Positions 4,496-47,138 of a stretch of 64,000 nucleotides of DNA are shown in pieces. Both the position numbers and the translations under genes were made by a program. The notes under the pieces are model-generated. The model saw nothing but the letters and a program-made list of their open reading frames with translations. It made no database searches and was not told where the DNA came from. How positions within the stretch are numbered: the stretch's first letter is position 1; each line of letters begins with the position of its first letter. Origin of the DNA: Ptiloglossa arizonensis (lineage: Eukaryota > Arthropoda > Insecta > Hymenoptera > Colletidae); contig NC_135051.1 in NCBI RefSeq assembly GCF_051014685.1, positions 10,249,557 to 10,313,556 on the forward strand, in the 5' to 3' direction.

Positions 4496-4630
4496 ATGCG
4501 ATCCAAATCTTCCTCGTCCACTGCACAACACTATCGACGCGATACTGTCACGACGTGTTCTACGAATGCGATGACGACGTTGAAGCGTGGTGATGACGAC
4601 GGAGATAGCGATTGCGATGGTAATGTCGAT

Positions 4631-5161
4631 GGTGAGGATGGTGGCGATGGTGGCGATGGTGGTGATGGTGACGAAGGTGACGAAGGTGACGAAGGTGACG
4701 AAGGTGACGAAGGTGACGAAGGTGACGAAGGTGACGAAGGTAACGAAGGTGACGAAGGTAACGAAGGTAACGAAGGTGACGAAGGTGACGAAGGTAACGA
4801 AGGTAACGAAGGTAACGATGGTAACGATGGTAACGATGGTGACGATGGTGACGATGGTGACGATGGTGACGATGGTGACGATGGTGACGATGGTGACGAT
4901 GGTGACGATGGTGACGATGGTGACGATGGTGGCGATGGTGGCGATGGTGACGATGGTGACGATGGTGACGATGGTGACGATGGTGACGTTGGTGACGTTG
5001 GTGACGTTGGTGACGTTGGTGACGTTGGTGACGTTGGTGACGTTGGTGACGTTGGTGACGTTGGTGACGTTGGTGACGTTGGTGACGTTGATGACGATGG
5101 TAACGATGGTGACGATGGTGACGATGGTGACGATGGTGACGATGGTGATGATAGTAACGAT
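4631..5161. repeat. 9-bp minisatellite, 59 units
   Basis: The array has period 9 with consensus GGTGACGAT and exactly 59 units. Variants sit in blocks: GGTGACGAA units first (about 4667-4815), then GGTGACGAT, then a run of GGTGACGTT (about 4982-5090), then GGTGACGAT again. A frame starting at ATG 4496 and stopping at 5179 reads through the array as Gly-X-Y-like triplets (GDE, GDD, GDV). Other frames on both strands are also open, because a 9-bp unit preserves any frame, so coding is unproven. A short GATGAAAA repeat follows at about 5165-5190. Confidence 0.95.
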
Positions 5162-5179
5162 GGAAAGATGAAAAGATGA

Positions 5180-12862: not shown

Positions 12863-15800
12863 ATGTCACTGTGGGCAAAAGCGCAACAATTGCCACAAGA
12901 TGCATTGCAACAAGTACGTTCAGTTTACGGAGAACATTTTCCAATAGAGGTTAGACATTTTTTGTCCACTTGGATTGAAGAAAAAATGTGGTAAGATATC
13001 TGTAAATTTATCCTTAATAGTATTTTATTTAGTGTTTTTAGATCTTTTAGTGTAATATTTATCTTATAGGACCGACATAGAACCTGAAAATCCACAACAC
13101 GAGCAGTATATAGCTAATCTTGTTATATCTCTGATACAAGAATTGGAGTCCAAAGCAGCCTCCTTAAATACTGACGATATGTTTCTCACAAAGTTAAAAT
13201 TAATCGAAGCGGCGAAAAATTTTCGAGTAAGTTCTTCAACTAAATATTAATACATACTTTTTAAAAATGTAACGTACACGTACGTTTTCTTTTGTAACAC
13301 AGCAAAGATACACTCATAATCCAACAACATTATTTAGAATAATTAGACACTGTCTAGCAACAGAAATGAAGTTAGTAGCTCAAGTAGAAAATTTGGGAGG
13401 TGGTTTAATGAGTATGGCAGGCGGGAAGGTAGGATTGATCAGCGATGCTGTTGCTGAAATAGCACAACACGTTGAATCTTTACGACGTAGAACACAAGAA
13501 GCCGGGGAAGATTTACGAAAAATGGAGCAAGAACAAGAAGCATTTGCAATTAGTTATCACGAGTGTACCAAATTAAATGCGCATCTTCAACATCTCGCGA
13601 CACAGCCACAGAATCAGCAAAATTTGGACTTGGAAAAAAAAATCAGGAGGTAACTAAAAGCTTTCGGTTGTTTAAAGCGAAAATATTTATTTAGCTGCTT
13701 TTATCAACATTAATAATGATATTGCTATTTTGTTACAGACAAAAAGAACAACAAGAACAATTATTAAATCATAAAGTGGCTGGTTTAATGCAGTTACGTT
13801 TGACATTAGCTGACAAACTGAAAGATACAATCACTAGATTAAACAGTTTGCAATCCAGAGTTTTGGACGATGAACTTATTAGGTAAATTTTCTGTTGACT
13901 TTGACTCTTTTGTTTAATGATTTCGAATATTTTTTAACCGCGAATGTTTTTGTTTCAAAGATGGAAAAGAGTACAACAATTAGCCGGAAACGGTGCACCA
14001 TTTAACAGTAATTTGGACTCTATTCAAGAGTGGTGTGAAAGTTTGGCTGAATTAATTTGGCTCAATCGTCAACAAATCAAAGAAGCAGACCGTTTAAAAC
14101 AAAAATTTGCACTCGAACCACCAGGAATGCAAGATATTCTTCCCACGTTAAATTCACAGATTACACGGCTTCTTAGTTCGCTAGTTACTAGCACATTTAT
14201 CATAGAAAAGCAACCACCGCAAGTAATGAAGACTAATACTCGTTTTACAAGTACGGTACGTCTTCTAGTAGGTGGACAATTAAATGTTCATATGAATCCA
14301 CCTCATGTAAAAGTAAGCATTATTAGCGAAGCTCAAGCAAATGGTATGTTAAAGAGCGATAAAATGGCTAAAAGTGTGGAAGCTAGCGGTGAAATTCTGA
14401 ATAATTCAGGAACAATGGAATATCATCAGGTAAGAAATACTATACAGTTAGCGAGTTGTTTGAAAACATGGTTATTTGAAATATCTCGACACATATATAA
14501 ATGTGACGTTACTTCTTAGGCGACAAGACAACTTTCTGTAAGCTATCGTAACATGCAATTAAAGAAGATCAAAAGGGCGGAGAAAAAAGGAACAGAGTCT
14601 GTTATGGATGAAAAATTTTCGCTTCTCTTTCAGTCGCAATTTAGCGTTGGAGGAGGCGAATTAGTATTCCAGGTGTGGACGTTAAGTTTACCAGTTGTGG
14701 TGATTGTACACGGAAATCAGGAACCACACGCGTGGGCTACGGTTACGTGGGACAACGCTTTCGCTGAACCTGGAAGAGTACCATTTGCAGTACCCGATAA
14801 AGTTCCATGGGGCCAAGTAGCTGAAGCATTAAACGTTAAATTTAGATCTGCGACAGGTCGTTTGTTAACAGAAGATAATCTACGATTTCTCGCGGAGAAA
14901 GCGTTTCGCGGTGGAAACGCCGGTGGACAAGACTATTCTGGTTTACTATTAAGCTGGGCACAGTTTTGCAAGGAGCCATTACCCGAAAGAAATTTCACGT
15001 TCTGGGAATGGTTTTACGCCGTGATGAAGTTAACCAGAGAGCACCTGCGAGGACCATGGGTCGACGGTTACATACTGGGATTTGTGAGAAAGAAACAAGC
15101 TGAGGAAATGCTGGCAAATTGTGCATCAGGAACATTCCTAATGCGTTTCTCAGATTCCGAGCTCGGTGGTGTTACTATCGCATGGGTTGGAGGTAAAAAT
15201 TGTTATCTTTTTTCTTTTCTTGTTCGTATTCTAGTTTCACTATTTCGTGTTTAATTCTATCGATGCACGACTATTTCGTACTAAACATTTTGTAGATCAA
15301 ACGGAAGTGTTTATGTTACAACCGTTCACGAGCAAAGATTTTGCGATTCGCAGTTTGGCGGATCGTGTGTTCGATTTGCAACACTTACTTTACCTCTACC
15401 CAGACCTGTCGAAAGATCAAGCATTTTCCAAATATTACACACCATTCACAGGTAAATATTTCTCTCGTCTTATACTTTTGCTCGTTCAGGCGATACTTGG
15501 AACTTGAATTATGGACAATGTATTTTGTCGTAGAAAATCAATCTACGTCGACGAATGGATATGTGAAACCTTTGTTAGTAACGCACGTACCTGGTTGGGG
15601 CGGGCCGGTTATTGGTGGTCAGACACCATCACACTCTTCTGTAGTCGGGGTAGGAAGTAGTGGTCAGAGTGGTCTAGGTGGTAGTTATCCTGCAACGCCG
15701 TCCACCATGTTCCAAGCGCACAGTCCTGACCCGTCCGTAACACGCGATACTCCATCGGTGGCTTCCAGGTCAGTCCCCTGGATCTAAAATATCAATCGTA

Positions 15801-30935: not shown

Positions 30936-31663
30936 AACCTCTTCTTTTAGGTTGGAAATGATTTTCAGAACCGTTCTTGATGTACTCTTAATCTATAAGT
31001 GTGTTAATTCTTAAAATGTGCTTTATTTTCACAGAATTTGGTTTTTAAAATTTTCAAATGATGACACTACTAACCTCGAAACTTCATAAAAGTTTTTTCG
31101 TACAATGTGTTACTTGTGCTTTTGGCATGTCCGGACACGTTCGTATAGAAAATACATTTAAAGGGTATTCATGAACCGAGTCTTCATTATAAAAATAAAT
31201 ATACTTATACGTAATATAAAGTTTCAAAAACTGTTGCAATACGATGTAAGTTCATTTATTGGAAATTTAATTTTCTAAATTGAAATAAACATATAATTAT
31301 ACATTTGTAAAAATAATTATTATGTATAATAAGTCAACGTGTTATTTATGTCGATGATGAAATTTCGTTAGAAAAACGGTAATAACGATTATTAATATCC
31401 GATTGTAAGTAATACTTCGTCAATTATTTATACTTAAAATTTTTAATTATATTCATTTTACGCGAGTGCGTTTGCTCACTTTTTTTATTTGATAAAAATA
31501 CGTTAGGTTAAAATCGTTGCATCCAGTTGAAAATCTTTAATTAAATTTTAATCCAGTTAGAAACTCGCACAGCTTTTGTAAGTGGAATTTCGACTAGAAC
31601 GCACACAAGATAAAAGTCGCCTAAGGCGCGTGCGTCAAATATAGCAAATAAAGATAGGAGGAC

Positions 31664-31812
31664 ATGGCTACCCTTTCCCGCCTAACATTACAAAACTCAA
31701 TCCAAACCGGAAATTTTCTCAATCGACCAATAGTTTTGCCGATCAACCTTGAACTTGAACTTGAACTTGAATTTAACGCGAAGGGCTTCAATAAAGTTTG
31801 TAAACCGTTTAT
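31664..31812 (+). CDS. Small frame ending in a strong splice donor (unit A), function unknown
   Basis: The frame begins MATLSRLTLQNSIQTG, a basic, hydroxylated N-terminus reminiscent of a mitochondrial presequence, and ends at KPFM followed by a textbook donor GTAAGT at 31813. The two units differ by a 6-bp indel in a CTTGAA hexamer inside the frame (4 versus 3 units), which keeps phase, and by a 3-bp indel just upstream of the ATG. A nearby AG at about 31861 would give a 48-bp intron and a very short second exon. The opposite strand is also open, so coding is uncertain. Confidence 0.25.
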
Positions 31813-32183
31813 GGTAAGTTCCAACTTCTTAATGGGCAAAAATCCCAACTACCCTTGAATAGTCCGATATTCTTCTTCAACATCCATAACCTAATAAAAA
31901 TGGCATTTGAAACAACGATAATTAAAATTAACCCGACCAAGGTCGGAAAATCGTATAGGATGTACCGATAGAGGTGCCAGTATAATAAAATAAAATGAAC
32001 TGCATTCGAATATACACTCCTAAATGTTGATATTACATGTTTACAAAAATCACCAATTGAATCATCGTAATTCTTAGTTTCATTAATAAATAACTTTATA
32101 TTTATACTTTGTTGGTCAAATTTAGTATGAAGTGAAATAGTATCTGTCTCTTTGAACTTTTTCCCAAAATGGAATAGAAACAC
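31809..32183 (-). pseudogene. Seipin-like C-terminal fragment, unit A
   Basis: A 124-codon minus-strand frame without an ATG lies about 40 bp beyond the FNTB stop. It contains VYSNAVHF, then YRYILYDFPTLVG and a hydrophobic segment ending NAIFIRLWML. This resembles the end of seipin (BSCL2), where an RYLLYNFP-like motif precedes the second membrane helix. The N-terminal half of seipin is absent. The frame is conserved without amino-acid change in unit B. It may be a decayed fragment in the FNTB 3' UTR, or a terminal exon whose partners I could not find. Confidence 0.3.
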
Positions 32184-32223
32184 TTGTTACTCTATTAATG
32201 CATTTCAAGTATCAAATACACGT

Positions 32224-33616
32224 TCAGTCAGGTATTGGCAGTCCATTAAAGTATTCCAAAGCATTGATCGCAGAAGGAAGTACTAGGTTATACGCAGGAT
32301 GAATTACTTCTAACCAATTCGTGGTAGGAGGTCCAATATGCCAATCCCATGGAGAATTTTGTGCAACTGACAATCCACTAAGTACATAAAATGATTAGTT
32401 ATTCAGTACTAGATTGTTAGCACGTTCTTGAAATCCACCTTCCAAGCGCATTTGTCTATTTACTAGCCACCTCTAAAAGCAAATGCAAATGCAAATGAAA
32501 ATGGAAAGAAACTTTTTAATGTATACTAGAAAATTCAAAGAGACTGTATGTACCAGTAACGAATTCCAACGACAGAAATCGGTTTTTCCAAGAAGATCAA
32601 GTGCTGCCATCCCACTATATGTATACACCCCATGAGCTTCCATGCCAGGACAACTTCCAAAACCACCCTCCCATGTTTGGCATTTAGCTATCCACTTCTT
32701 TGTTCCTTTGAATAAATCAGGAGTATATATATTAGTCAACCTTGCTACAGCGATTGCATAATGTGCTCCTCTTATGTCTACTTCTCCATCACATTGCAAA
32801 CGAAAAGATCCATCCTCTCCACGTAAAGATACTAAAAAGCGTTTAAGTGCTCGTCTAGAATCAATGTACATATAATTTTTTACACGGTATATCATAATAT
32901 TAAACTTTAACTTCAATAATCATGCACATTGTAATTGTATAATTTGTATATACCTTCTAATTACTTGATACGCATTATAAGAGCCAATGATACATAATGC
33001 CTTTACTGCTGCGTACGTAGAAGGTAAGCGAGGATATTGCCCTGGACCATCCCCAAATCCTCCTTCTGATGACTGACATTTGGCCAAAAGATCAACAATT
33101 TTAGAACTGTTCTAAAGGCATTCTTAACAATTCAACGGAATGTAAAATCCAATAACATAACTCTGGTCTGCTGCTGTCTAAACACTGAATGGCAAAATAA
33201 CATACCCATAATGTAAGAAATAAAAGTAAAAGTACAAATTGATAGGAAAAATGATAAAGCCCTTTAAGAGCACTTACATCCTGAATTTAAGTAAGGTTGG
33301 TCAAAGATTTTTTTAACATTGCTATATGTTTTTGTCTCATTAAAGTGGGTTCAATGTCTAATTCGTACACCTTAAGTATAAAATCTTCCCTACGAGCCTA
33401 TAATCGAAAAGTTTGTATATATAAGTAGATGATAAGATAAAAACTACACGTATATATCGGTTATTTCTATTGACATGGAAAACATACCTGTCTGATCGAT
33501 GTTACGGTCTCTACACCTTCATCATTTTGCTGCTGTTCTACTATTTCAGCGTAACTTCTAACGTGAGGTTCATCGAGTTGATTGGGTTCTTCATCATCAA
33601 CCATTAGATTCCACAT
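32224..33616 (-). pseudogene. FNTB: Broken FNTB copy (unit A)
   Basis: This is the duplicate of the farnesyltransferase beta gene in unit B. Exon 1 is identical to B. Exon 2 has an in-frame stop (TAA for the CAA before the conserved IHD, near 33290). Exon 3 carries an 8-bp deletion that shifts the frame, near 33105-33115. About 266 bp spanning most of exon 5, the following intron and the start of exon 6 is replaced by a 13-bp filler near 32384-32398. That loss removes the zinc ligands corresponding to Asp297 and Cys299 (VDSCYSFW) and His362 (YHTCY). The remaining exons keep their splice sites. Substitutions relative to B cluster in exons and alter amino acids. No active enzyme can be made. 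Confidence 0.93.
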
Positions 33617-33872
33617 AATGTATTGAACAGACGAAGACGTATTAACACTCGGTAGAACCAAATTATGTGTTTGAAGTGGAGAAGAAAGTGAACAAGAAAT
33701 TGAGTGAGTTATTACAATCACTATATCACAATCATGTTGAATATACAATAATTACTTTACGATTAATAGCACGTTAAACTTCTCTAACATTAACTAATTA
33801 AAACTTGTGCTAGACACACTTGCAAATGATTAAAAACTGTGCGTGGAAAGCTTTAGTTATTTAACTTGTCGT
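33617..33872. promoter_or_regulatory. Divergent promoter between FNTB and the unknown gene (unit A)
   Basis: The FNTB start (minus strand, 33616) and the unknown gene's first ATG (plus, 33873) are about 256 bp apart and head-to-head. The spacer is identical in unit B by eye, so both copies inherited the same regulatory DNA. No TATA box is obvious. Confidence 0.5.
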
Positions 33873-35551
33873 ATGGTGGTGCGTACGTTCCTAGTTGCGT
33901 TTACCTACTAAAACATTTCTTTCGTCTGTGACTTTATTTTCAGAAGGTGGACAGAAGGTATTTTAATGTACGAATTTTTTGTAATTGTCCTAAAATGTAT
34001 ATTAAAACAATTGATAATTTTGTACCAAAAACTTTTATTCTTAATACGTTTTACGGTGAAGAGACTTGTTTCTGTTGGAACGAGGACAAGCTTGTAATAT
34101 TTTCATACAAGAACAATGATTCCGTGTTCGTTAACACTATAACAGCACCAGCTCCGATAAAAAATATACAATTTTTCGGTGGTCGGGCTTTTCTCATTTG
34201 TATTCCGCAAGGGATATACAAACTTCGGAGAAATCGAAAATTCGCTGTTTTAAATACAAGTGCAATCGAAATGGGTACTACTTTTTATGAAGTATTGACA
34301 CCAAAGAATAAGTATCTCTATTTATACAATAAGCAAAACTTGACAAGTAAACAATTGTTTCAATTTTCTTCAGAGGAAAGTGATTCTCATGTATTATGTG
34401 TTTATCCAGTAAATTCAGAAAATGCTACGGAACAATTTATAAAAATTTTGACGAAAACAGATTCTACGGTAGAAAATTTATGCGTAATTGCAATTGGAAA
34501 GAGAGTTCTAACATTACTAAACAATATTGTTCGAATAATATACAATAGTATTTATTCTATCAGAGATATTATACCTGTTCGAACATATCTTAAGGTTGAT
34601 GCATTGCTGTTGGTCACTGATGCAGATATTATTCTAATGCATGCAAAAGACAATGAACTTGTTTTTGAAAACATTCCTTTAGGAACAAATGTACAAACTA
34701 TTTGTGCTAGTTTTAGCGACTTCAGTAAAGATACATTGTTGTTTGTTTATTCCGCCGAATCTAAATTATATTATGGACAAAAACAGTTATCAGAGGATAA
34801 TATTCTTCAAACGAGAGTCGAAGATAAAAACTTTCTTTGTTTGCAATGTTACGATTCCAAAACAATTGTAGGCCTGACCACGGATAAACAACTAGTAGAA
34901 TTTTCTATGGACACAGTAGGAAAGATGTTATCGACGAAAAATGATGCTCTTATTAATCTTTCTTTCGACATGTTGAAAGGTACCGACCTTATAATGGACA
35001 GGATTTATAAAGGGGCCGAAGAACTAGATAGATTGAATAAAGTATTAATAATTGAAAAAGATAAATTAAAAAGAATAAATTTATACGCTCATAAACATAA
35101 AGAAAAATTTCGTCCAAAAATAATTGTACATAAAACTGCTAACGGATCACTCTTAAGCGCAAGTTTTGGCAATAAGCTACCAAAGGACAGTTGGATTGTT
35201 TTTAATTTGAAATCGGAATGTCAGAATATATTCTGTATAAAGAAAGTAGTAGACGAGGAAACTTTAGTCGATATTTCTATATCCGAAGGTTGGCCAGCAA
35301 ACTCGCTGCAAATTGCAATTGATTTAATTACTTTGAAAGACGATAGATATTCCTGGTGTCTCATAAGGAATTATGTAACTGATCCTCTCTACGAGGAAAA
35401 GAAAAGAAAAATGATATTTATAAATGCAGGTTTCGTAAAGGCTAGAATCGCGACACTCGAAAGTTTTCTAAGAGAAGGGAACATCGATATGAAAGAGTTA
35501 TCCAAAATTAGAAAATGTGTAAGAGAATTTACCAAGACGCCCAAGTTATAG
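33873..35551 (+). CDS. Unknown protein, beta-propeller/coiled-coil type (unit A)
   Basis: The main exon is open from an acceptor TTATTTTCAG at 33943 to the stop at 35551. A start at ATG 33873 with a 65-bp intron (33879-33943; branch-like CTACTAAAAC) joins in phase and gives MVKVDRRYFNVRIFCNCP and 537 aa. Without splicing, the first in-frame ATG is 33995 (518 aa). Residues 1-340 are short beta-strand segments (CFCWNEDKLVIFSY; LLLVTDADIILMH), as in a propeller. A helical Lys/Glu-rich stretch follows (AEELDRLNKVLIIEKDKLKR), then a beta-rich domain (LPKDSWIVFNLK) and a basic end. The order recalls FANCB/FAAP100 of the Fanconi core complex, but I cannot prove homology. It is divergent from FNTB. 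AATAAA lies near 35589. Confidence 0.85.
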
Positions 35552-35785
35552 TTGGTAGTTGGTTAAAAAAATAATATATACTCTACGTAAATAAATGTAG
35601 TCGTATTTGATTAAAAAGAAATTGTACTCTTGTTAAATGTAATACATATTTATAAAATTTTGTACTATATTTTGTATTATTTTCTATTGTCTAATGAAAT
35701 ATACAATTGTAAATGAAAACAATAATTTAAAGAAACAAAAAAGAAAAGAAAAAGGTTCGAACATGTTGATCGATATTTCGCTAAT

Positions 35786-37237
35786 TCATAATTTCTCCGA
35801 GCTAGGTACTTCGACAATGCTACCTATGCTGCAGCTAGAGCTTTTCTTTGAATGTTTCTGATTCCTCGAACTACTTGGTGTCCTAACAGTGCCCAACCGA
35901 GTCTGAAACGCTTCCAACGATTTCGGGTTTTTCTTGGATCCGACGCGTTCCATATTTCTGGCATTGCTATCGAGACCGCGTCGCCAGAGTTTGGCAAAAC
36001 AGACGCGAAAGTTTTCCGAGAAAACGCCGTAAAGCAGGGGATTGACCACGGTGTTGAATTGTGCGACGATCAGAGTCCAAACGAAATGATGCGATCTCAG
36101 AAAGAAATTCGTATCCTCGGTAGGCCTTCTGCCGTCTATGTAGATCAATATCATCACCGTGGTGATGGGAAGCCACATTACAAGGACTGCTACCACATTC
36201 AACAGCAAAATTCGTACGACTCGAAGATGCTTGTGTAGTCGTATCTCCTCGTGTTGGGAGAGGCTACCAGTACGGCCCTGTCGACCAGTCACCGACGCAG
36301 CTGACAACTTCCTTCCCGCCCAGGGTAACAACGTACCGACCACCGATAGTTCAGAGTCTCTTCTACCTGTTACACCGTTCTCCAACCCCTGGATGCATAT
36401 ATTACATACGTATATTTATCGTGTATATTTAAAAATAGAAAACCACGATACATACACGATTAATTATAAAATACAATCAAGTTTGATAATGTCCGCACGC
36501 GAGAGAAAATGTTAAAAAGTGTTTACATCTCCACTTTAATTTACAGTCTACTAGCTCTCCTGTCATCACAATAGCGACAATGCGCGCGATGGAAGTTAGC
36601 AGTCTGTAAACTAGAGTGGGAATGTAAACACTTGTTAACCTTCTTGTGAACGGACAATGAACGAAGATGAATAATATACGCGTATATTTAGAAAATATGC
36701 ATTATTATAAATGAATTACTTGCGCAACGCACGGAACAGCCCATCTGCTTCGCGAGTCGAGAATTTTTTGAAAGATCCGCTGATAATGATAGACCAGAAG
36801 AGCCATGGGTAGGAGACAAGTCAGGACGATGATCGGTACCGTAAAGCACAACGAGACGTTCACGATTTTGCTTCGTGGGAAGACCAAAGTGCAGATCGTC
36901 AACTCGTTCCTGATATCCTGCGTATTTTAACGAAGATTAAGGAGGCGCTCCGGCCAAAGTATTGCATTTATTATTTGTATTGTTACCGATCGAAACGGTA
37001 CAAAGTAATTTATTTTGTTATCGATATCTTTTTAACGAAGACGGTTTGTAATACCTTCGGCTTAAACCAAAATACGACAGGTAGGAAAACGAAAGCCGCG
37101 ATGATCCATGTGACAAGACTAGCCGCTAGAACTCTGGGCTTCGTTAAGGCACTTCTATAAGGAGCTATTGCCAAGCATCGATGTCTGTCCATCGATATAA
37201 ACGTCAATGTCCATAAGAGCACAAAGCCGCAGACAAA
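35786..37237 (-). pseudogene. 5'-truncated class A GPCR copy (unit A)
   Basis: Three exons are present: 37237-37055 (rest of TM3, MDRHRCLAIAP, TM4), 36917-36720 (TM5) and 36388-35786 (TM6, TM7 with NPLLYG, cytoplasmic tail ending VPSSEKL). They are open and differ from unit B at only two residues that I can see (Lys/Arg after SALT; Ser/Gly in the tail). The exons for the N-terminus, TM1, TM2 and the first part of TM3 lie outside the duplicated segment, so no full receptor can be made from this copy alone. It could act only as an alternative downstream cassette for the exons at 47138 and 46000, or be a dying remnant. Confidence 0.85.
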
Positions 37238-37731
37238 CTATAAGGAGTAAAAGCCACCAGGTAAATGTACATTTTCAACGATTGCTCGTTGCTTTACTAT
37301 TCCTTAATTTCCTGCAAAACCAACGTAAAAATGAGAATAATATTATGTTGCGCCCGTTGCGCCCGTTCACCATTTAAATTGTGAATCGTCGATAATTTTT
37401 AATTGATTTAACTATTTTAGTATATTATTACAACTTTAATTATAGGAAGCCAAATTATACATCGTGAAGAGGCGACGAGCCGAAAAAGACCACTCGGCGA
37501 TCTCAAATTCTGTTACTCGTGAGGAAGAATCGTGCCACGGAACGTATCGAAAGGAGCATCGTATTTATAGGTCCACCCTTCTTGGGTGATTACGGCCTTG
37601 ATCCGTGAACGAGGAAGGTTTATCGAATGACAACAACTTGTCCTATTATCGTGCACACGTGGTGTTTTGCTCTCGTTCTAATTAAAACGATCATATTTTA
37701 TTAAAAGTTCGAACGAAGCCAAAGTAAACTG

Positions 37732-37788
37732 AATAATAATAATAATAATAATAACAATAGTAACAACAATAGTAACAACAATAGTAAC

Positions 37789-37826
<38 letters not shown>

Positions 37827-37905
37827 TAATAATAATAATAACAATAATAATAATAATAACAATAATAATAATAATAACAATAATAATAATAATAACAACA
37901 ACAAC

Positions 37906-37970
<65 letters not shown>
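37732..37970. repeat. AAT/AAC trinucleotide array, unit A (239 bp)
   Basis: Interrupted AAT repeats with AAC and AGT variants lie in the intron upstream of the truncated GPCR exons. The homologous array in unit B is 146 bp and differently interrupted, so the arrays have changed length since duplication. Confidence 0.95.
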
Positions 37971-38897
37971 GTACGATATAGAGAAGTATCTTCGCCCGTT
38001 GAAATTACCATAAGATCCATGTACAGAACAAGGATTAGCTTGAGAGAGTTATCGACCTTCGCCCAACGGGCTACAGATTCATTTTGACCTGTGTAAATGT
38101 CCGCGTCACGATACTCGAACGAAAAAGAACCGATCAAATTCTGCTTTTCGGTTAGAACGGACCCCGTTATTCGTTAATTAAAGAACGCCAATTATGAACG
38201 CAGATATAAATGAAAGTGAAAATGAAATTAAGAATTTATTACATCCAATAACGTGATCGATAGATTGAAATGAGAGTTTGTAAATTTCAGATGACTGGCC
38301 AGAGTGTGAACCTCGAAACATCATAATAGTTTTTTCGTACAATGTGTTACTTGTGCTTTTGGCATGTCCGGACACGTTCGTATAGAAAATACATTTAAAG
38401 GGTATTCATGAACCGAGTCTTCATTATAAAAATAAATATACTTATACGTAATATAAAGTTTCAAAAACTGTTGCAATACGATGTAAGTTCATTTATTGGA
38501 AATTTAATTTTCTAAATTGAAATAAACATATAATTATACATTTGTAAAAATAATTATTATGTATAATAAGTCAACGTGTTATTTATGTCGATGATGAAAT
38601 TTCGTTAGAAAAACGGTAATAACGATTATTAATATCCGATTGTAAGTAATACTTCGTCAATTATTTATACTTAAAATTTTTAATTATATTCATTTTACGC
38701 GAGTGTGTTTGCTCACTTTTTTTATTCGATAAAAATACGTTAGGTTAAAATCGTTGCATCCAGTTGAAAATCTTTAATTAAATTTTAATCCAGTTAGAAA
38801 ATCGCACAGCTTTTGTAAGTGGAATTTCGACTAGAACGCACACAAGATAAAAGTCGCCTAAGGCGCGTGCGTCAAATATAGCAAATAAAGATAGGAC

Positions 38898-39040
38898 ATG
38901 GCTACCCTTTCCCGCCTAACATTACAAAACTCAATCCAAACCGGAAATTTTCTCAATCGACCAATAGTTTTGCCGATCAACCTTGAACTTGAACTTGAAT
39001 TTAACGCGAAGGGCTTCAATAAAGTTTGTAAACCGTTTAT
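38898..39040 (+). CDS. Small frame ending in a strong splice donor (unit B), function unknown
   Basis: Counterpart of the frame at 31664 with one fewer Leu-Glu pair (6-bp indel). It begins MATLSRLTLQ and ends at KPFM before GTAAGT. Retention of frame in both copies is suggestive only, since the copies are very similar. Confidence 0.25.
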
Positions 39041-39411
39041 GGTAAGTTCCAACTTCTTAATGGGCAAAAATCCCAACTACCCTTGAATAGTCCGATATTC
39101 TTCTTCAACATCCATAACCTAATAAAAATGGCATTTGAAACAACGATAATTAAGATTAACCCGACCAAGGTCGGAAAATCGTATAGGATGTACCGATAGA
39201 GGTGCCAGTATAATAAAATAAAATGAACTGCATTCGAATATACACTCCTAAATGTTGATATTACATGTTTACAAAAATCACCAATTGAATCATCGTAATT
39301 CTTAGTTTCATTAATAAATAACTTTATATTTATACTTTGTTGGTCAAATTTAGTATGAAGTGAAATAGTATCTGTCTCTTTGAACTTTTTCCCAAAATGG
39401 AATAGAAACAC
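39037..39411 (-). pseudogene. Seipin-like C-terminal fragment, unit B
   Basis: Same 124-codon frame as in unit A, beginning about 40 bp after the intact FNTB stop on the same strand. It has no ATG start. It carries the YRYILYDFP motif and one membrane-spanning segment. It probably lies within the FNTB 3' UTR. Confidence 0.3.
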
Positions 39412-39451
39412 TTGTTACTCTATTAATGCATTTCAAGTATCAAATACACGT

Positions 39452-41108
39452 TCAGTCAGGTATTGGCAGTCCATTAAAGTATTCCAAAGCATTGATCGCA
39501 GAAAGAAGTACTAGGTTATACGCAGGATGAATTACTGCTAACAAATTCGTGGTACGAGATCCAATAACCAATGGCTCTGGAGAATTTTGTGCAACTGACA
39601 ATCCACTAAGTGCATAACATGTATGATACATATCCATATATCTACAACAAACATAAAAGCTTATAGCAGTTTTGTTATATTTTGTACTGCAGTGGTAATA
39701 GTAGTGTTACATGCCTTTCAGGCTTATCCAAAAGGCCACCATTATGATGCTGGCAACAAACTAGTAAATATTCTTGTACAGCTTCTTGATTGAACAACCA
39801 ATAATTGGAATTGTACACCTTTCCTTCTTTTCTTAAAAATGCATGAATTAATGCAAAAGTTCCGCCTAGCCAAAATGAATAGCAACTATCTACTAGTTTG
39901 TTAGGACGTCCTTGAAATCCACCTTCCAAGCGCATTTGTCTATTTACTATCCACCTCTAAAAGCAAATGCAAATGCAAATGAAAATGGAAAGAAACTTTT
40001 TAATGTATACTAGAAAATTCAAAGAGACTGTATGTACCAGTAACGAATTCAAACGACAGAAATCGGTTTTTCCAAGAAGTTCAAGTGCTGCTATCCCACA
40101 ATATGCATATCCCCCATGAGCTTCCATGCCAGGACAACCTCCAAAACCACCCTCCCATGTTTGGCATTTAGCTATCCAATTCTCTGTTCCTTTGAATATT
40201 TCAGGAGTATATATATTAGTCAACTTTGCTACAGCGATTGCACAATATGCTCCTCTTATGTCTACTTCTCCATCACAGTGCAAACGAAAAGATCCATCCT
40301 CTCCATGTAAAGATGATAAAAAGCGTTTAAGTGTTTTTCTAGAATCAATGTACATATAATTTTTTACACGGTATATCATAATATTAAACTTTAACTTCAA
40401 TAATCATGCACATTGTAATTGTATAATTTGTATATACCTATTAATTACTCGATACGCTTTACAAGTGCCAATGGTACATAATGCATTTACTGCTGCGTAC
40501 GTAGAAGCTAAGTGAGGATATTGCCCTGGACCTCCCCCAAATCCTCCTTCTGGTGACTGACATTTGGCCAAAAAACCAGTAATTTTAGAATAATAAAAAT
40601 CTTCTAAACGCTCTTCTAACAATTCAAGGGAATGTAAAATCCAATAACATAACCATGGTCTGCTGCTGTCTAAACACTTAATAGCAAAATAACATACCCA
40701 TAATGTAAGAAATAAAAGTAAAAGTACAAATTGATAGGAGAAATGATAAAGCCCTTTAAGAGCACTTACATCGTGAATTTGAGTAAGGTTGGTCAAAGAT
40801 TTTTTTAACATTGCTATATGTTTTTGTCTCATTAAAGTGGGTTCATTGTTTAATTTGTACAACTTAAGTATACAATCTTCCGTACGACCCTATAATCGAA
40901 AAGTTTGTATATATAAGTAGATGATAAGATAAAAACTACACGTATATATCGGTTATTCCTATTTACATGGAAAACATACCTGTCTGATCGATGTTACGGT
41001 CTCTACACCTTCATCATTTTGCTGCTGTTCTACTATTTCAGCGTAACTTCTAACGTGAGGTTCATCGAGTTGATTGGGTTCTTCATCATCAACCATTAGA
41101 TTCCACAT
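39452..41108 (-). CDS. FNTB: Protein farnesyltransferase subunit beta
   Basis: Six exons join in frame: 41108-40980, 40889-40770, 40676-40438, 40338-40038, 39956-39715 and 39641-39452 (406 aa from MWNLMVDDEE; a later in-frame ATG is at 41096). The prenyltransferase alpha-alpha barrel repeats are clear: QSPEGGFGGGPGQYPHL, DGSFRLHCDGEVDIRGAYC, CPGMEAHGGY and LEGGFQGRPNKLVDSCYSFW. Zinc ligands are the Asp and Cys of VDSCYSFW and the His of MYHTCY; the substrate-binding Arg of DIRGAYC and His of EAHGGY are kept. With the alpha subunit it transfers farnesyl to CaaX cysteines in the cytosol. Intron 5 must use a GC donor (GAAAG|GCATGT) to keep the frame into YHTCY. It diverges from the unknown gene. 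Confidence 0.95.
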
Positions 41109-41364
41109 AATGTATTGAACAGACGAAGACGTATTAACACTCGGTAGAACCAAATTATGTGTTTGAAGTGGAGAAGAAAGTGAACAAGAAATTGAGTGAG
41201 TTATTACAATCACTATATCACAATCATGTTGAATATACAATAATTACTTTACGATTAATAGCACGTTAAACTTCTCTAACATTAACTAATTAAAACTTGT
41301 GCTAGACACACTTGCAAATGATTAAAAACTGTGCGTGGAAAGCTTTAGTTATTTAACTTGTCGT
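41109..41364. promoter_or_regulatory. Divergent promoter between FNTB and the unknown gene (unit B)
   Basis: Counterpart of 33617-33872. Apparently identical in sequence, it serves FNTB to the left and the unknown gene to the right. Confidence 0.5.
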
Positions 41365-43043
41365 ATGGTGGTGCGTACGTTCCTAGTTGCGTTTACCTAC
41401 TAAAACATTTCTTTCGTCTGTGACTTTATTTTCAGAAGGTGGACAGAAGGTATTTTAATGTACGAATTTTTTGTAATTGTCCTAAAATGTATATTAAAAC
41501 AATTGATAATTTTGTACCAAAAACTTTTATTCTTAATACGTTTTACGGTGAAGAGACTTGTTTCTGTTGGAACGAGGACAAGCTTGTAATATTTTCATAC
41601 AAGAACAATGATTCCGTGTTCGTTAACACTATAACAGCACCAGCTCCGATAAAAAATATACAATTTTTCGGTGGTCGGGCTTTTCTCATTTGTATTCCGC
41701 AAGGGATATACAAACTTCGGAGAAATCGAAAATTCGCTGTTTTAAATACAAGTGCAATCGAAATGGGTACTACTTTTTATGAAGTATTGACACCAAAGAA
41801 TAAGTATCTCTATTTATACAATAAGCAAAACTTGACAAGTAAACAATTGTTTCAATTTTCTTCAGAGGAAAGTGATTCTCATGTATTATGTGTTTATCCA
41901 GTAAATTCAGAAAATGCTACGGAACAATTTATAAAAACTTTGACGAAAACAGATTCTACGGTAGAAAATTTATGCGTAATTGCAATTGGAAAGAGAGTTC
42001 TAACATTACTAAACAATATTGTTCGAATAATATACAATAGTGTTTATTCTATTAGCGATATTATACCTGTTCGAACATATCTTAAGGTTGATGCATTGCT
42101 GTTGGTCACTGATGCAGATATTATTCTAATGCATGCAAAAGACAATGAACTTGTTTTTGAAAACATTCCTATAGGAACAAATGTACAAACTATTTGTGCT
42201 AGTTTTAGCGACTTCAGTAAAGATACATTGTTGTTTGTTTATTCCGCCGAATCTAAATTATATTATGGACAAAAACAGTTATCAGAGGATAATATTCTTC
42301 AAACGAGAGTCGAAGATAAAAACTTTCTTTGTTTGCAATGTTACGATTCCAAAACAATTGTAGGCCTGACCACGGATAAACAACTAGTAGAATTTTCTAT
42401 GGACACAGTAGAAAAGATGTTATCGACGAAAAATGATACTCTTATTAGTCTTTCTTGCGACATGTTGAAAGGTACCGACCTTATAATGGACAGGATTTAT
42501 AAAGGGGCCGAAGAACTAGATAGATTGAATAAAGTATTAATAATTGAAAAAGATAAATTAAAAAGAATAAATTTGTACGCTCATAAACATAAAGAAAAAT
42601 TTCGTCCAAAAATAATTGTACATAAAACTGCTAACGGATCACTCTTAAGCGCAAGTTTTGGCAATAAGCTACCAAAGGACAGTTGGATTGTTTTTAATTT
42701 GAAATCGGAATGTCAGAATATATTCTGTATAAAGAAAGTAGTAGACGAGGAAACTTTAGTCGATATTTCTATATCCGAAGGTTGGCCAGCAAACTCGCTG
42801 CAAATTGCAATTGATTTAATTACTTTGAAAGACGATAGATATTTCTGGTGTCTCATAAGGAATTATGTAACTGATCCTCTCCACGAGAAAAAGAAAAGAA
42901 AAATGATATTTATAAATGCAGGTTTCGTAAAGGCTAGAATCGCGACACTCGAAAGTTTTCTAAGAGAAGGGAACATCGATATGAAAGAGTTATCCAAAAT
43001 TAGAAAATGTGTAAGAGAATTTACCAAGACGCCCAAGTTATAG
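41365..43043 (+). CDS. Unknown protein, beta-propeller/coiled-coil type (unit B)
   Basis: This is the full-length second copy of the gene at 33873, with the same 65-bp intron option (41371-41435) and the same alternatives for the start (ATG 41365 spliced, or ATG 41487 unspliced). By eye the proteins differ at 11 of about 537 residues (for example Ile/Thr in KxLTKTDS, Arg/Ser in YSIxDII, Gly/Glu in TVxKML, Phe/Cys in SLSxDM, Tyr/His in DPLxE). Only about two silent differences are visible. No stop or frameshift separates the copies, so both could be expressed. Domain layout and doubts about identity are as for unit A. Confidence 0.85.
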
Positions 43044-43277
43044 TTGGTAGTTGGTTAAAAAAATAATATATACTCTACGTAAATAAATGTAGTCGTATTT
43101 GATTAAAAAGAAATTGTACTCTTGTTAAATGTAATACATATTTATAAAATTTTGTACTATATTTTGTATTATTTTCTATTGTCTAATGAAATATACAATT
43201 GTAAATGAAAACAATAATTTAAAGAAACAAAAAAGAAAAGAAAAAGGTTCGAACATGTTGATCGATATTTCGCTAAT

Positions 43278-45334
43278 TCATAATTTCTCCGAGCTAGGTA
43301 CTTCGACAATGCTACCTATGCTGCAGCTAGAGCTTTTCTTTGAATGTTTCTGATTCCTCGAACTACTTGGTGTCCTAACAGTGCCCAACCGAGTCTGAAA
43401 CGCTTCCAACGATTTCGGGTTTTTCTTGGATCCGACGCGTTCCATATTTCTGGCATTGCCATCGAGACCGCGTCGCCAGAGTTTGGCAAAACAGACGCGA
43501 AAGTTTTCCGAGAAAACGCCGTAAAGCAGGGGATTGACCACGGTGTTGAATTGTGCGACGATCAGAGTCCAAACGAAATGATGCGATCTCAGAAAGAAAT
43601 TCGTATCCTCGGTAGGCCTTCTGCCGTCTATGTAGATCAATATCATCACCGTGGTGATGGGAAGCCACATTACAAGGACTGCTACCACATTCAACAGCAA
43701 AATTCGTACGACTCGAAGATGCTTGTGTAGTCGTATCTCCTCGTGTTGGGAGAGGCTACCAGTACGGCCCTGTCGACCAGTCACCGACGCAGCTGACAAC
43801 TTCCTTCCCGCCCAGGGTAACAACGTACCGACCACCGATAGTTCAGAGTCTCTTCTACCTGTTACACCGTTCTCCAACCCCTGGATGCATATATTACATA
43901 CGTATATTTATCGTGTATATTTAAAAATAGAAAACCACGATACATACACGGTTAATTATAAAATACAATCAAGTTTGATAATGTCCGCACGCGAGAGAAA
44001 ATGTTAAAAAGTGTTTACATCTCCACTTTAATTTACAGTCTACTAGCTCTCCTGTCATCACAATAGCGACAATGCGCGCGATGGAAGTTAGCAGTCTGTA
44101 AACTAGAGTGGGAATGTAAACACTTGTTAACCTTCTTGTGAACGGACAATGAACGAAGATGAATAATATACGCGTATATTTAGAAAATATGTATTATTAT
44201 AAATGAATTACTTGCGCAACGCACGGAACAGCCCATCTGCTTCGCGAGTCGAGAATTTTTTGAAAGATCCGCTGATAATGATAGACCAGAAGAGCCATGG
44301 GTAGGAGACAAGTCAGGACGATGATCGGTACCGTAAAGCACAACGAGACGTTCACGATTTTGCTTCGTGGGAAGACCAAAGTGCAGATCGTCAACTCGTT
44401 CCTGATATCCTGCGTATTTTAACGAAGATTAAGGAGGCGCTCCGGCCAAAATATTGCATTTATTATTTGTATTGTTACCGATCGAAACGGTACAAAGTAA
44501 TTTATTTTGTTATCGATATCTTTTTAACGAAGACGGTTTGTAATACCTTCGGCTTAAACCAAAATACGACAGGTAGGAAAACGAAAGCCGCGATGATCCA
44601 TGTGACAAGACTAGCCGCTAGAACTCTGGGCCTCGTTAAGGCACTTCTATAAGGAGCTATTGCCAAGCATCGATGTCTGTCCATCGATATAAACGTCAAT
44701 GTCCATAAGAGCACAAAGCCGCAGACAAACTATAAGGAGTAAAAGCCACCAGGTAAATGTACATTTTCAATGACTGCTCGTTGCTTTACTATTCCTTAAT
44801 TTCCTGCAAAACCAACGTAAAAATGAGAATAATATTATGTTGCGCCCGTTGCGCCCGTTCACCATTTAAATTGTGAATCGTCGATAATTTTTAATTGATT
44901 TAACTATTTTAGTATATTATTACAACTTTAATTATAGGAAGCCAAATTATACATCGTGAAGAGGCGACGAGCCGAAAAAGACCACTCGGCGATCTCAAAT
45001 TCTGTTACTCGTGAGGAAGAATCGTGCCACGGAACGTATCGAAAGGAGCATCGTATTTATAGGTCCACCCTTCTTGGGTGATTACGGCCTTGATCCGTGA
45101 ACGAGGAAGGTTTATCGAATGACAACAACTCGTCCTATTATCGTGCACACGTGGTGTTTTGCTCTCGCTCTAATTAAAACGATCGTATTTTATTAAAAGT
45201 TCGAACGAAGCCAAAGTAAACTGAATAATAATAATAATAACAATAACAATAACAACAACAATAGTAACAACAATAGTAACAATAACAGCAATAATAATAA
45301 TAACAATAATAATAATAATAATAACAATAACAAC

Positions 45335-45370
<36 letters not shown>

Positions 45371-47138
45371 TACGATATAGAGAAGTATCTTCGCCCGTTG
45401 AAATTACCATAAGATCCATGTACAGAACAAGGATTAGCTTGAGAGAGTTATCGACCTTCGCCCAACGGGCTACAGATTCATTTTGACCTGTGTAAATGTC
45501 CGCGTCACGATACTCGAACGAAAAAGAACCGATCAAATTCTGCTTTTCGGTTAGAACGGACCCCGTTATTCGTTAATTAAATAAGGCCAATTATGAACGC
45601 AGATATAAATGAAAGTGAAAATGAAATTAAGAATTTATTACATCCAATAATGCGATCGATAGATTGAAATGAGAATTTGTAAATTTCAGATGACTGGCCA
45701 GAGTGTGAACCCCATCGTTCCTGAATTGGGGGAAGAAAATTTTCTCGGCGAATCGGAGCTCTTGGATCTTACCTGGGAGTAGGGTAGCAATCTACAGATC
45801 GTCTCCCCGAGTCGCCAAGATTGCGTCAATCTTGTGTAAGCGATCGCTGGCACACCAACGGTGAACAAGAGATCTGCTGCGGCCAAGTTCACCAGGCACA
45901 AGTTCGTGGGCGTTCTCATCTCCTTGTACCTGAGCACGCAGCCAGCTATACCCAAATTGGCGCCAACCGCCAGCACGAAACTAACGGCCAATATCACCAC
46001 CTGTGAGCACGTGATGCCCTTCTATGAATTCAAAGAATTGAAATTGAAGTCACTCGTTCCCTATCCACCGTGGGAAAAAAACGACCGCGACGTTCGCGTG
46101 CTCGTGCAAGCTCATTCGAGGAACCAAAAAAAAAACTAGGACGCACTTGCGGCGCATTGTTCGCGCTTCTCTAATGAGACACAAGTTTTCGGGCGATGCC
46201 GTTGCTAATTAATAGCTCCGCGCACGGGACGCGACAGTTATACAACGCGATAAAATAATAATCACCGATGCGGATGAGCCTCCGGGCGGAGGGGTGGGTG
46301 GGGAGAACCTTCGAAAAATCGATTTTCCTTTATTTCATTTTCTCAGAGCATACGCCACCAAAAGTATCCCCGCCAAAGAATATCGCCGGATTTGCAAAAT
46401 TAACGATCTTACGAGCGTTTAAAAAGATTGCAGGTGCTTCTTGTTTTGTTCGATGAGTCGTAGGGGCAATGTGTAAGGTAGTACGAGTACGTTGAGAAAG
46501 CTCAGGGAAAGAGAAATGCGAGCGAGCGAGCAAGAGAGAATTTTTTTCGAATCTTCGGCACGCGTGTATTTATCTTCCGCATTATCATTTTTTAAAATCA
46601 CCCTAAAGATTTAAACGAAACGAAACAAAACAAAACGAAAAATAGTCTAAATTCGAGGTACTGTGAAATCTTTAATTTTCAATAATTTTTAAAAATTTTA
46701 GCTACGGTTATACCCATGTTCCCACCTAGTAAAATGGTTTTTGAATGTTTGATTTCAGGCAAGCAGAACGGCCGAAATTGTGGCAACCGTGAAGGCGCTT
46801 TGAACGAACGGGACTCTACTAAGGTGGTCGTAACTTCTGTAATTTTGATTATTTTTACATGAAAAATATTTGGGTATACTTTTGAAATATCGAGGCAATA
46901 GATTCGTGCAAACCCGATGCGAAAATGGGTTGCGGTTCTGCTTGAAAGAATCTCAAACAGCAGCTGGAGATGCATTGCGGCCCGGACTAGAGTATACCCT
47001 CTAAAAATGATTTCACTAGAAAAATCTTGATACCTCGACGGCGCTGGCTCCTTGTCGATTTCCGAGCTGGCTGTAGTATGTGAAATAATATCGTGGTCCC
47101 CATTCCTCGTCCTCGCCCCAAAGATACGAGGAATTCAT
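43278..47138 (-). CDS. Class A (rhodopsin-like) GPCR, orphan peptide-receptor type
   Basis: Five exons join in phase 0: 47138-47034, 46000-45773, 44729-44547, 44409-44212 and 43880-43278 (438 aa). The 35-codon first exon, missed by length-limited searches, reads MNSSYLWGEDEEWG and ends SAVE before GTATCA. It supplies an N-glycosylation site (NSS) and runs directly into TM1 (VVILAVSFVLAVGANLG). TM2 has NLAAADLL with the conserved Asp. The TM3 Cys is in ETICRLLPYS and the DRY-equivalent is MDRHRC. TM6 has WLPITTV and TM7 NTVVNPLLYG. The tail is Ser/Lys-rich. The ligand is not identifiable; I did not recognise a named family. The intron between exons 2 and 3 contains the right breakpoint of the duplication. 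Confidence 0.87.
45224..45369. repeat. AAT/AAC trinucleotide array, unit B (146 bp)
   Basis: Homologue of 37732-37970, located in GPCR intron 2. The pattern of AAC interruptions differs from unit A. Confidence 0.95.

What the first reader, a model, noticed from the sequence alone, without database searches (positions are those of the whole stretch)
32224..40889. FNTB duplicates diverge only in exons 2-6, and only at amino-acid-changing positions
Comparing unit A (32224-33400) with unit B (39452-40889) codon by codon, I count about 62 differing codons in exons 2-6 and find none that is silent. Many need two or three base changes (Trp/Glu, Val/His, Pro/Asp, Ser/Val). The short introns between these exons, exon 1, and the flanks are identical or nearly so (0-2 differences each). 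Under neutral decay of a pseudogene roughly a quarter of the changes should be silent and introns should diverge equally; gene conversion cannot homogenise silent sites inside exons alone. This looks like intense diversifying selection on one copy before it broke, or an unknown exon-directed process. An assembly or editing artefact must also be excluded.
Basis: seen in the sequence. Interest (0 to 1): 0.87.

Follow-up and report, generated by a model that had tools for sequence, protein, structure and literature searches.

The report
Duplicated bee enzyme with replacement-only divergence
A bee carries a broken second copy of a standard enzyme gene that differs from the working copy almost only where the protein changes, a pattern usually left by strong selection and rarely this extreme.

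Summary
Confirmed. Copy B encodes the annotated farnesyltransferase beta subunit (FNTB) of the bee Ptiloglossa arizonensis at 100% identity. A 7.2-kb tandem duplication with 4-bp microhomology at its junction carries copy A (broken) and copy B (intact). In exons 2-6, 65 of 297 comparable codons differ and 0 are silent; 61 if four codons at a deletion junction are set aside. Random change would leave about 15-19 silent codons; 0 of 20,000 simulations left none. Path-averaged pN/pS is about 8 (3.9-43). In-gene introns differ at 5 of 363 positions, exon 1 at none, the rest of the unit at 0.61%. Homologs place most changes on A but about 7-10 on B. A's replacements avoid conserved sites weakly at most (P 0.05); 13 of 79 nearly invariant positions are hit. 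Neutral decay is rejected. Gene conversion filtered by selection on B fits only rarely, and only with tracts of about 6 bp or less. Best reading: a burst of replacement-favouring selection on the extra copy, later broken. Its cause is unknown; an artefact is not excluded, since no reads or outgroup DNA were available.

The parts
31072..38308 (.). Unit 1 of the tandem duplication (holds FNTB copy A)
   Evidence: Direct repeat, period about 7237; AACC at its start, at the junction and after unit 2
38309..45707 (.). Unit 2 of the tandem duplication (holds FNTB copy B)
   Evidence: outside FNTB exons 2-6 (with their introns) and the microsatellite the units differ at 35 of 5757 positions
33488..33616 (-). 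FNTB copy A, exon 1: identical to B
33278..33397 (-). FNTB copy A, exon 2: 9 replacement codons including a premature TAA (codon 80, 33287-33289)
32954..33184 (-). FNTB copy A, exon 3: 19 replacement codons and an 8-bp deletion (frameshift)
32554..32854 (-). FNTB copy A, exon 4: 19 replacement codons, no stop in B's frame
32390..32472 (-). FNTB copy A, remnant of exon 5: 8 replacement codons, 4 of them at the deletion edge (zinc-ligand codons 286 and 288 lost, TAA at codon 289, 32395-32397); then a net deletion of 256 bp taking the rest of exon 5, intron 5 and the start of exon 6
   Evidence: a filler of 17 nt at the edge is possible, no template found in the window
32224..32389 (-). FNTB copy A, remnant of exon 6: 10 replacement codons
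40980..41108 (-). FNTB copy B, exon 1
   Evidence: joined exons give 406 residues, 100% identical to the NCBI protein of Ptiloglossa arizonensis
40770..40889 (-). FNTB copy B, exon 2
40438..40676 (-). FNTB copy B, exon 3
40038..40338 (-). FNTB copy B, exon 4
39715..39956 (-). FNTB copy B, exon 5 (followed by a GC donor)
39452..39641 (-). FNTB copy B, exon 6
33995..35551 (+). Head-to-head neighbour gene in unit 1, 518 aa, named only 'uncharacterized' or 'hypothetical' in relatives
   Evidence: (no Pfam family)
41487..43043 (+). Neighbour gene in unit 2: 13 codons differ from unit 1, of which 11 replacement and 2 silent

Best explanation
A 7.2-kb stretch with FNTB, its head-to-head neighbour and a GPCR-like gene was duplicated in tandem in the Ptiloglossa lineage (shown), with 4-bp microhomology at the junction (shown; that it caused the event is inferred). 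The extra FNTB copy A, still read in frame, then took amino-acid replacements far faster than neutral sites changed, through selection favouring change in its protein (inferred). The working copy B took a smaller number (from comparison with homologs). Ordinary gene conversion probably kept exon 1 and the shared promoter alike (inferred). Copy A was then disabled by a stop codon, an 8-bp deletion and a 256-bp net deletion across exons 5 and 6 (shown; that this came last is inferred). What A was selected for is unknown. A conflict or dosage role, or a new role that needs no prenyltransferase activity, fits better than a changed enzyme, because catalytic residues are among those replaced.
For: 65 of 297 codons differ, 0 silent. 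Path-averaged pN/pS 8.2 without the junction codons, bootstrap 3.9-43; pS interval 0.25-2.7%, in line with 0.61% for the rest of the unit, so silent sites fit a recent duplication and only replacements are in excess (Nd 71.5 over 683 sites). Changes run up to exon edges (codons 44, 162, 164) and all but stop in introns: Fisher P 5e-8 against in-gene introns (entered by hand as 5 of 361; one search counts 5 of 363), 8e-30 against all non-exonic positions. In exon 3 the replacements beyond the frameshift still respect the original frame, so most came before it. Stops among A's changes: 1 outside the junction against 4.2-5.7 expected, P 0.02-0.07, and conserved positions are hit somewhat less than others (P 0.05), so A was probably still translated. 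In the protein tree A has branch 0.301 and B 0.033. FNTB is fast in other bees too: Colletes stem 0.356, and the two Colletes proteins are 77% identical over the 297 compared columns.
Against: A's replacements track conservation only weakly. 13 of 79 nearly invariant positions and 22 of 88 variable ones were hit, junction left out (Fisher P 0.19). Mann-Whitney P is 0.30 with the junction codons against all other sites, 0.05 without them against unchanged sites, and 0.0009 for all 65 changed codons, B's own changes included, with 19 homologs. Single-base replacements have mean BLOSUM62 -0.24 (49 codons), random ones -0.55 (no test made), so they are milder than random rather than radical. Selection that favours change at so many sites of a conserved fold is not a standard adaptive pattern. 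A carries several disabling lesions although silent sites show little elapsed time. B is the best hit to A (120 of 366 hits listed), so no other species is seen to share A. No expression data.
Confidence: 0.45

Rival explanations
1. Long-dead copy plus very short-patch gene conversion. A has been a pseudogene for a long time and collects changes at all sites. Tiny patches pass from A to B (or mismatches are repaired one by one), and selection on B rejects every patch that alters its protein. Silent and intronic differences are thereby erased and harmful replacements remain.
For: A's changes depend weakly on conservation while B's lie only at variable sites (10 of 10 below 0.70 top-residue frequency), as for a dead copy next to a constrained gene. 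B has about a fifth as many changes as A (10 against 53). 938 bp around exon 1 have no difference (P 0.004 at 0.58%; stretch picked after seeing it). A Logan protein of the neighbour gene is a mosaic of both units, which hints at exchange. A review passage says conversion tracts can be as short as a few nucleotides (PMC3924837, passages seen).
Against: Simulation with one-way A-to-B transfer, the most favourable case, 60 runs each: mean silent differences left are 37 at tract 300, 26 at 100, 15 at 30, 7.9 at 12, 4.4 at 6, 2.9 at 3 and 2.4 at 2; runs with none are 0 of 60 at 12 or more, 1 of 60 at 6, 3 of 60 at 3, 7 of 60 at 2. Adding back-transfer at tract 12 (10 runs each) left 8.3, 7.1 and 2.7 silent differences at 99%, 95% and 80% A-to-B, the last with only 12 intolerable replacements kept instead of about 70. 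Silent sites within identical runs of 15 bp or less: 72, expected differences 5.4 if 7.5% (my assumption) had changed, P 0.004. The model predicts A's changes enriched at conserved sites; they are, if anything, depleted there. In the honey bee, non-crossover conversion is described as rare (PMC4305242, passages seen).
Confidence: 0.15
2. Artefact: the A exons in the assembly are not a real sequence (mis-assembly, over-polishing, or a sequence altered by hand or program).
For: The pattern is codon-aware and otherwise close to random, which is odd for nature. No reads or read depth were available. None of the 120 listed hits (of 366) to the read-through of A is A itself, though a broken gene with introns would hardly be listed.
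Against: Assemblers and polishers do not know codons (general knowledge). A agrees with Hylaeus against B at 7 of 61 sites (random codons and residues: mean 1.9, P 0.001; same codons with random residues: mean 3.4, P 0.04), so A seems to hold ancestral information. The stretch is identical in the stored assembly, though this is not independent of the window. A recent odorant-receptor-like pair in the same assembly (L015/L019) shows silent changes in all five open stretches listed.
Confidence: 0.2
3. Ordinary neutral decay of a duplicated pseudogene.
For: A is broken: stop, frameshift, exon deletion.
Against: Silent changes 3 of 81 by path averaging against 22% expected, P 3e-6; in-gene introns at 5 of 363 and the rest of the unit at 0.61% against 81 of 891 in exons 2-6.
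Confidence: 0.02
4. Selection maintaining two different functions against ongoing conversion, as in the primate red and green opsins, producing a divergence peak over exons.
For: Low divergence in introns and flanks with a peak in exons. A review describes this for opsin exon 5 (PMC3924837, passages seen).
Against: Such peaks should carry linked silent and intronic differences. Here introns 3 and 4 have none, although they lie between diverged exons.
Confidence: 0.08

Closest known systems
NPIP/morpheus gene family of apes
   Same: Duplicates with an excess of replacement changes in certain exons; [quoted passage not shown]
   Different: NPIP copies are described as keeping an open reading frame and form a large family. 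Here one copy of a conserved enzyme is broken and conserved residues are hit.
Snake three-finger toxin genes (accelerated segment switch in exons, ASSET)
   Same: Introns of paralogs stay alike while exon segments differ (PMC2474615, passages seen).
   Different: There whole short segments are exchanged and the cysteine positions are kept. Here single codons scattered over five exons change, conserved ones included.
CYP21A2 and its pseudogene CYP21A1P
   Same: Functional gene and duplicated pseudogene with pseudogene-to-gene conversion and weak purifying selection on the gene (PMC3843699, passages seen).
   Different: There intron 2 follows divergent evolution. Here introns and silent sites are almost identical while 65 of 297 codons differ.
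Protein farnesyltransferase beta subunit (FNTB)
   Same: B is a full member: Pfam PF00432 at 5e-109, best solved matches are farnesyltransferase beta chains.
   Different: A has lost two zinc-ligand codons and several recalled substrate-pocket residues, and its frame is broken.

Membership tests
FNTB (copy B) | Prenyltransferase alpha-alpha toroid over most of the protein | tested here: met
   PF00432 residues 62-387 of 406, E 5.2e-109; farnesyltransferase beta chains of solved structures E about 1e-140 (that these are rat and human is recalled)
FNTB (copy B) | Zinc ligands Asp, Cys, His (rat D297, C299, H362; numbering recalled) | tested here: met
   B has D286, C288 and the MYHT stretch in the alignment; that these bind zinc is recalled
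FNTB (copy A) | Intact frame with catalytic residues | tested here: not met
   TAA at codon 80, 8-bp deletion, 256-bp net deletion, D286 and C288 lost; 10 of 18 active-site positions changed, 7 of 15 without the junction (the list was recalled after I had seen the changes)
Positively selected recent duplicate | dN/dS above 1 | tested here: met
   pN/pS 8.2, bootstrap 3.9-43, by Nei-Gojobori counting; no likelihood model was run
Positively selected recent duplicate | Silent and non-coding divergence alike | tested here: met
   pS interval 0.25-2.7%, rest of the unit 0.61%
Positively selected recent duplicate | Selected copy makes a protein | tested here: not met
   Frame broken at present; whether it was open during the burst is inferred from the stop deficit
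Neutral pseudogene | Silent share of changes as expected at random; introns diverge like exons | tested here: not met
Divergence peak under gene conversion | Linked silent or intronic sites raised around the selected sites | tested here: not met
   0 silent codons; introns 3 and 4 identical
Divergence peak under gene conversion | Paralogs exchange sequence in the population | tested here: inconclusive
   P0168 is a mosaic of the neighbour-gene copies, but it may be a chimera of read assembly

The most novel reading that the evidence does not exclude
Dead copy and working copy exchange DNA in patches of only a few bases, filtered by selection on the working protein. All silent and non-coding differences are continually erased while amino-acid differences pile up: a codon-resolved record of which residues the enzyme cannot lose.
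Probability: 0.12. Interest if true: 0.85.

Novelty: new variant of a known kind. Interest (0 to 1): 0.6.

Why it matters
If real, this is a very strong replacement-only signal in a duplicated gene pair, and it lies in a conserved enzyme rather than in a venom, immune or reproductive gene. Either the extra farnesyltransferase subunit was under intense selection in this bee, or gene and pseudogene exchange DNA at a resolution not normally assumed. Both can be tested by sequencing one 7-kb locus in a few related bees.

Tried and rejected
Neutral decay: rejected by silent counts and by intron and flank divergence. A third diverged donor copy: DNA of window 31100-34000 finds only the two units in the genome (the search skips common words, so this is not proof). 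The prenyltransferase search gave 8 matches: one at A, one at B, and six on contigs C3 and C13, which I took for other family members without checking. A donor would also bring silent changes. Ordinary-tract conversion: rejected by simulation (one search lumped silent with tolerated changes and was replaced by it). Templated filler at the deletion: longest match elsewhere in the window 10 bases. An alternative frame that would make A functional: only reasoned from the exon reading, no test run. Transversion excess in exons (35:39 transitions to transversions without the junction, against 26:9): noted but not used, because replacements are transversion-rich by nature and the second sample is small. 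Indel deficit in exons: one search printed 3 flank indels and P 0.048, but one of them is an edge effect of my segment; with 2, about 4 would be expected and 2 are seen, so it is not used. Polarity differs a little with the homologs used: B's residue commoner at 47, A's at 13, tie 5 with 19 homologs; 53, 10 and 2 with 100. Control pairs came from 30 loci of 134 receptor matches. Pairs gave silent:replacement 2:5 (L015/L019), 2:5 (L016/L017), 1:18 (L017/L020) and 1:24 (L016/L020) over short stretches that may run into introns or be misaligned; the last two look replacement-rich, and I do not rest on any of them. In one search, L015/L019 gave 6:10, 3:17, 5:18, 5:13 and 4:26 in open stretches of 60 codons or more that may partly be non-coding, and L016/L017 gave 8:7. 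Rfam scan of the window: 0 matches. Literature, held library only, listings seen: farnesyltransferase + positive selection + bees, 3 papers, none on this by title and abstract start; farnesyltransferase + beta subunit + duplication + Hymenoptera, 0; Ptiloglossa + genome assembly, 1, on microbiomes; Colletes gigas + positively selected + genome, 1, on sawfly gene families.
Full report
WHAT IS THERE. The window is part of contig C4 of an assembly of about 1.0 Gb. Copy B of the gene gives a 406-residue protein that is 100% identical to the NCBI 'farnesyl transferase beta subunit [Ptiloglossa arizonensis]', on a contig of 28,629,554 bases, the length of C4. The locus is a tandem duplication, 31072-38308 and 38309-45707. 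The bases AACC stand at the start of unit 1, at the junction and just after unit 2, as expected for one duplication with microhomology. Each unit holds FNTB (minus strand), a head-to-head gene of 518 codons (plus strand) and a GPCR-like stretch (Pfam 7tm_1 for unit 1; the same ORF in unit 2). A search with the FNTB half of unit 1 finds only these two places in the genome.

THE OBSERVATION. I defined B's six exons from splice sites and frame (exon 4 was corrected by one base between the two calls, and the donor after exon 5 is GC). Of 297 codons of exons 2-6 that can be compared, 65 differ and 0 are silent; 66 codons were left out because A has a gap. The 81 base changes fall 30/36/15 on codon positions. 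In 20,000 simulations with kappa 2 the mean number of silent codons was 16.8 and the minimum 4; with kappa 1 and 4 (4,000 runs each) zero also never occurred. Counting by mutational paths, a few silent steps hide in multiply changed codons: Sd 3.0, Nd 78.0, dS 0.015, dN 0.122; without the four junction codons Sd 2.5, Nd 71.5. pN/pS without the junction is 8.2 with bootstrap limits 3.9 and 43. Non-exonic positions differ at 11 of 1887 in and around the gene. The rest of the unit, exon 1 and intron 1 included, differs at 35 of 5757. The four introns that can be compared differ at 2 of 90, 3 of 93, 0 of 99 and 0 of 81; the last two lie between strongly diverged exons.

WHICH COPY CHANGED. Against 100 homologs B's residue is the commoner at 53 of 65 sites, A's at 10, equal at 2; with 19 homologs 47, 13 and 5. 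Against Hylaeus, the nearest bee in the tree (support 84), A matches and B does not at 7 of 61 sites (C49F, C155Y, R159Q, H174R, E366W, S372P, L390P, written B to A). Random codons with random replacements give 1.9 on average (P 0.001); random residues at the same codons give 3.4 (P 0.04). So most change is on A, but B changed too, and A seems to keep ancestral residues. This matters for the artefact question: a sequence derived from B by random editing would rarely recover that many Hylaeus residues.

WHAT KIND OF CHANGES. B's own changes lie only at variable positions. A's lie in every class: from variable to nearly invariant 22 of 88, 6 of 45, 6 of 41, 3 of 41 and 16 of 82. Tests of whether they avoid conserved sites give P 0.30 (junction included, against all other sites), P 0.05 (junction left out, against unchanged sites, means 0.63 and 0.73), Fisher 0.19 for nearly invariant against variable, and P 0.0009 when B's changes are counted too, with 19 homologs. 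The avoidance is thus weak at most. Of 18 active-site positions that I recall from the rat enzyme (offset of 11 read; list drawn up after seeing the changes), 10 are changed in A; without the junction 7 of 15, P 0.02. The stop at codon 80, the frameshift in exon 3 and the net deletion of 256 bp across exons 5 and 6 make A a pseudogene now. Because replacements beyond the frameshift still respect the old frame, most must precede it. Outside the junction there is 1 stop among the changes where 4.2-5.7 are expected (P 0.02-0.07), which suggests that A was translated while it changed.

EXPLANATIONS WEIGHED. Something that knows codons shaped this difference. Natural selection on A's protein does so directly, and then silent divergence should be close to flank divergence, as found. 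The weak point is that A's replacements look little constrained, so a plausible target of selection is missing. Selection on B can also act as a codon filter if A donates DNA to B by conversion, but ordinary tracts drag silent and replacement sites together. I simulated the most favourable one-way version: at mean tract 30, 100 and 300 bp, 15, 26 and 37 silent differences remain; none remained in 1 of 60 runs at 6 bp, 3 of 60 at 3 bp and 7 of 60 at 2 bp. It also predicts that A's differences gather at conserved positions, which they do not. An artefact remains possible because no reads could be seen. Against it stand the phylogenetic signal and the silent changes in another recent gene pair of the same assembly (L015/L019; one pair, from 30 of 134 receptor matches).

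SURROUNDINGS. FNTB is a fast gene in several bees: the Colletes stem has length 0.356 and the two Colletes proteins share 77% of the 297 compared columns. The neighbour gene has 11 replacement and 2 silent codon differences between units, which at 13 differences is compatible with neutrality; by eye, homologs place changes on both copies. A Logan protein (P0168) matches unit 1 at 9 of the 11 differing residues and unit 2 at residues 186 and 190. That may be a conversion tract or an assembly chimera.

KNOWN PARALLELS. NPIP/morpheus is described as among the most extreme positive selection on record (PMC7419210, passages). [quoted passage not shown] Opsin exon 5 shows a divergence peak under conversion (PMC3924837, passages). 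As far as the passages show, none combines a conserved enzyme, replacement-only change, weak regard for conservation and a broken copy. My searches for this gene or species found nothing on it in the held library, which lacks most subscription journals.

VERDICT. Replacement-favouring selection on a young extra copy is the best single account (0.45), but it does not explain everything, and reads plus one related bee would decide.

Noticed in passing
33473-34445: Nearly 1 kb around exon 1 and the shared promoter of unit 1 is identical to unit 2 (P 0.004 for 938 bp of it at the flank rate, picked after seeing it), suggesting a recent conversion tract.
   Followed up: partly
33995-35551 and 41487-43043: 518-aa protein without a Pfam family, seen in bees, wasps and ants, duplicated with 11 replacement and 2 silent codon differences. 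A Logan relative, P0168, is a mosaic of the two copies.
   Followed up: partly
not in the window: P0043 and P0048: FNTB of Colletes latitarsis and C. gigas is fast: 60% and 58% identical to B, 77% to each other over the compared columns, with changes in stretches that are constant in the other 14 of the 16 proteins shown (such as HLG for HLA).
   Followed up: no
39709-39714: B's intron 5 appears to start with a GC donor (AAAG/GCATGT), judged from the frame only.
   Followed up: no
37732-37971: Long TAA-type microsatellite in each unit, about 93 bp longer in unit 1.
   Followed up: no
4496-5295: Long triplet-type repeat open in three listed frames on both strands.
   Followed up: no
13944-15254: Open stretches that look like STAT-family exons (recalled resemblance; one search lists only the ORFs).
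   Followed up: no
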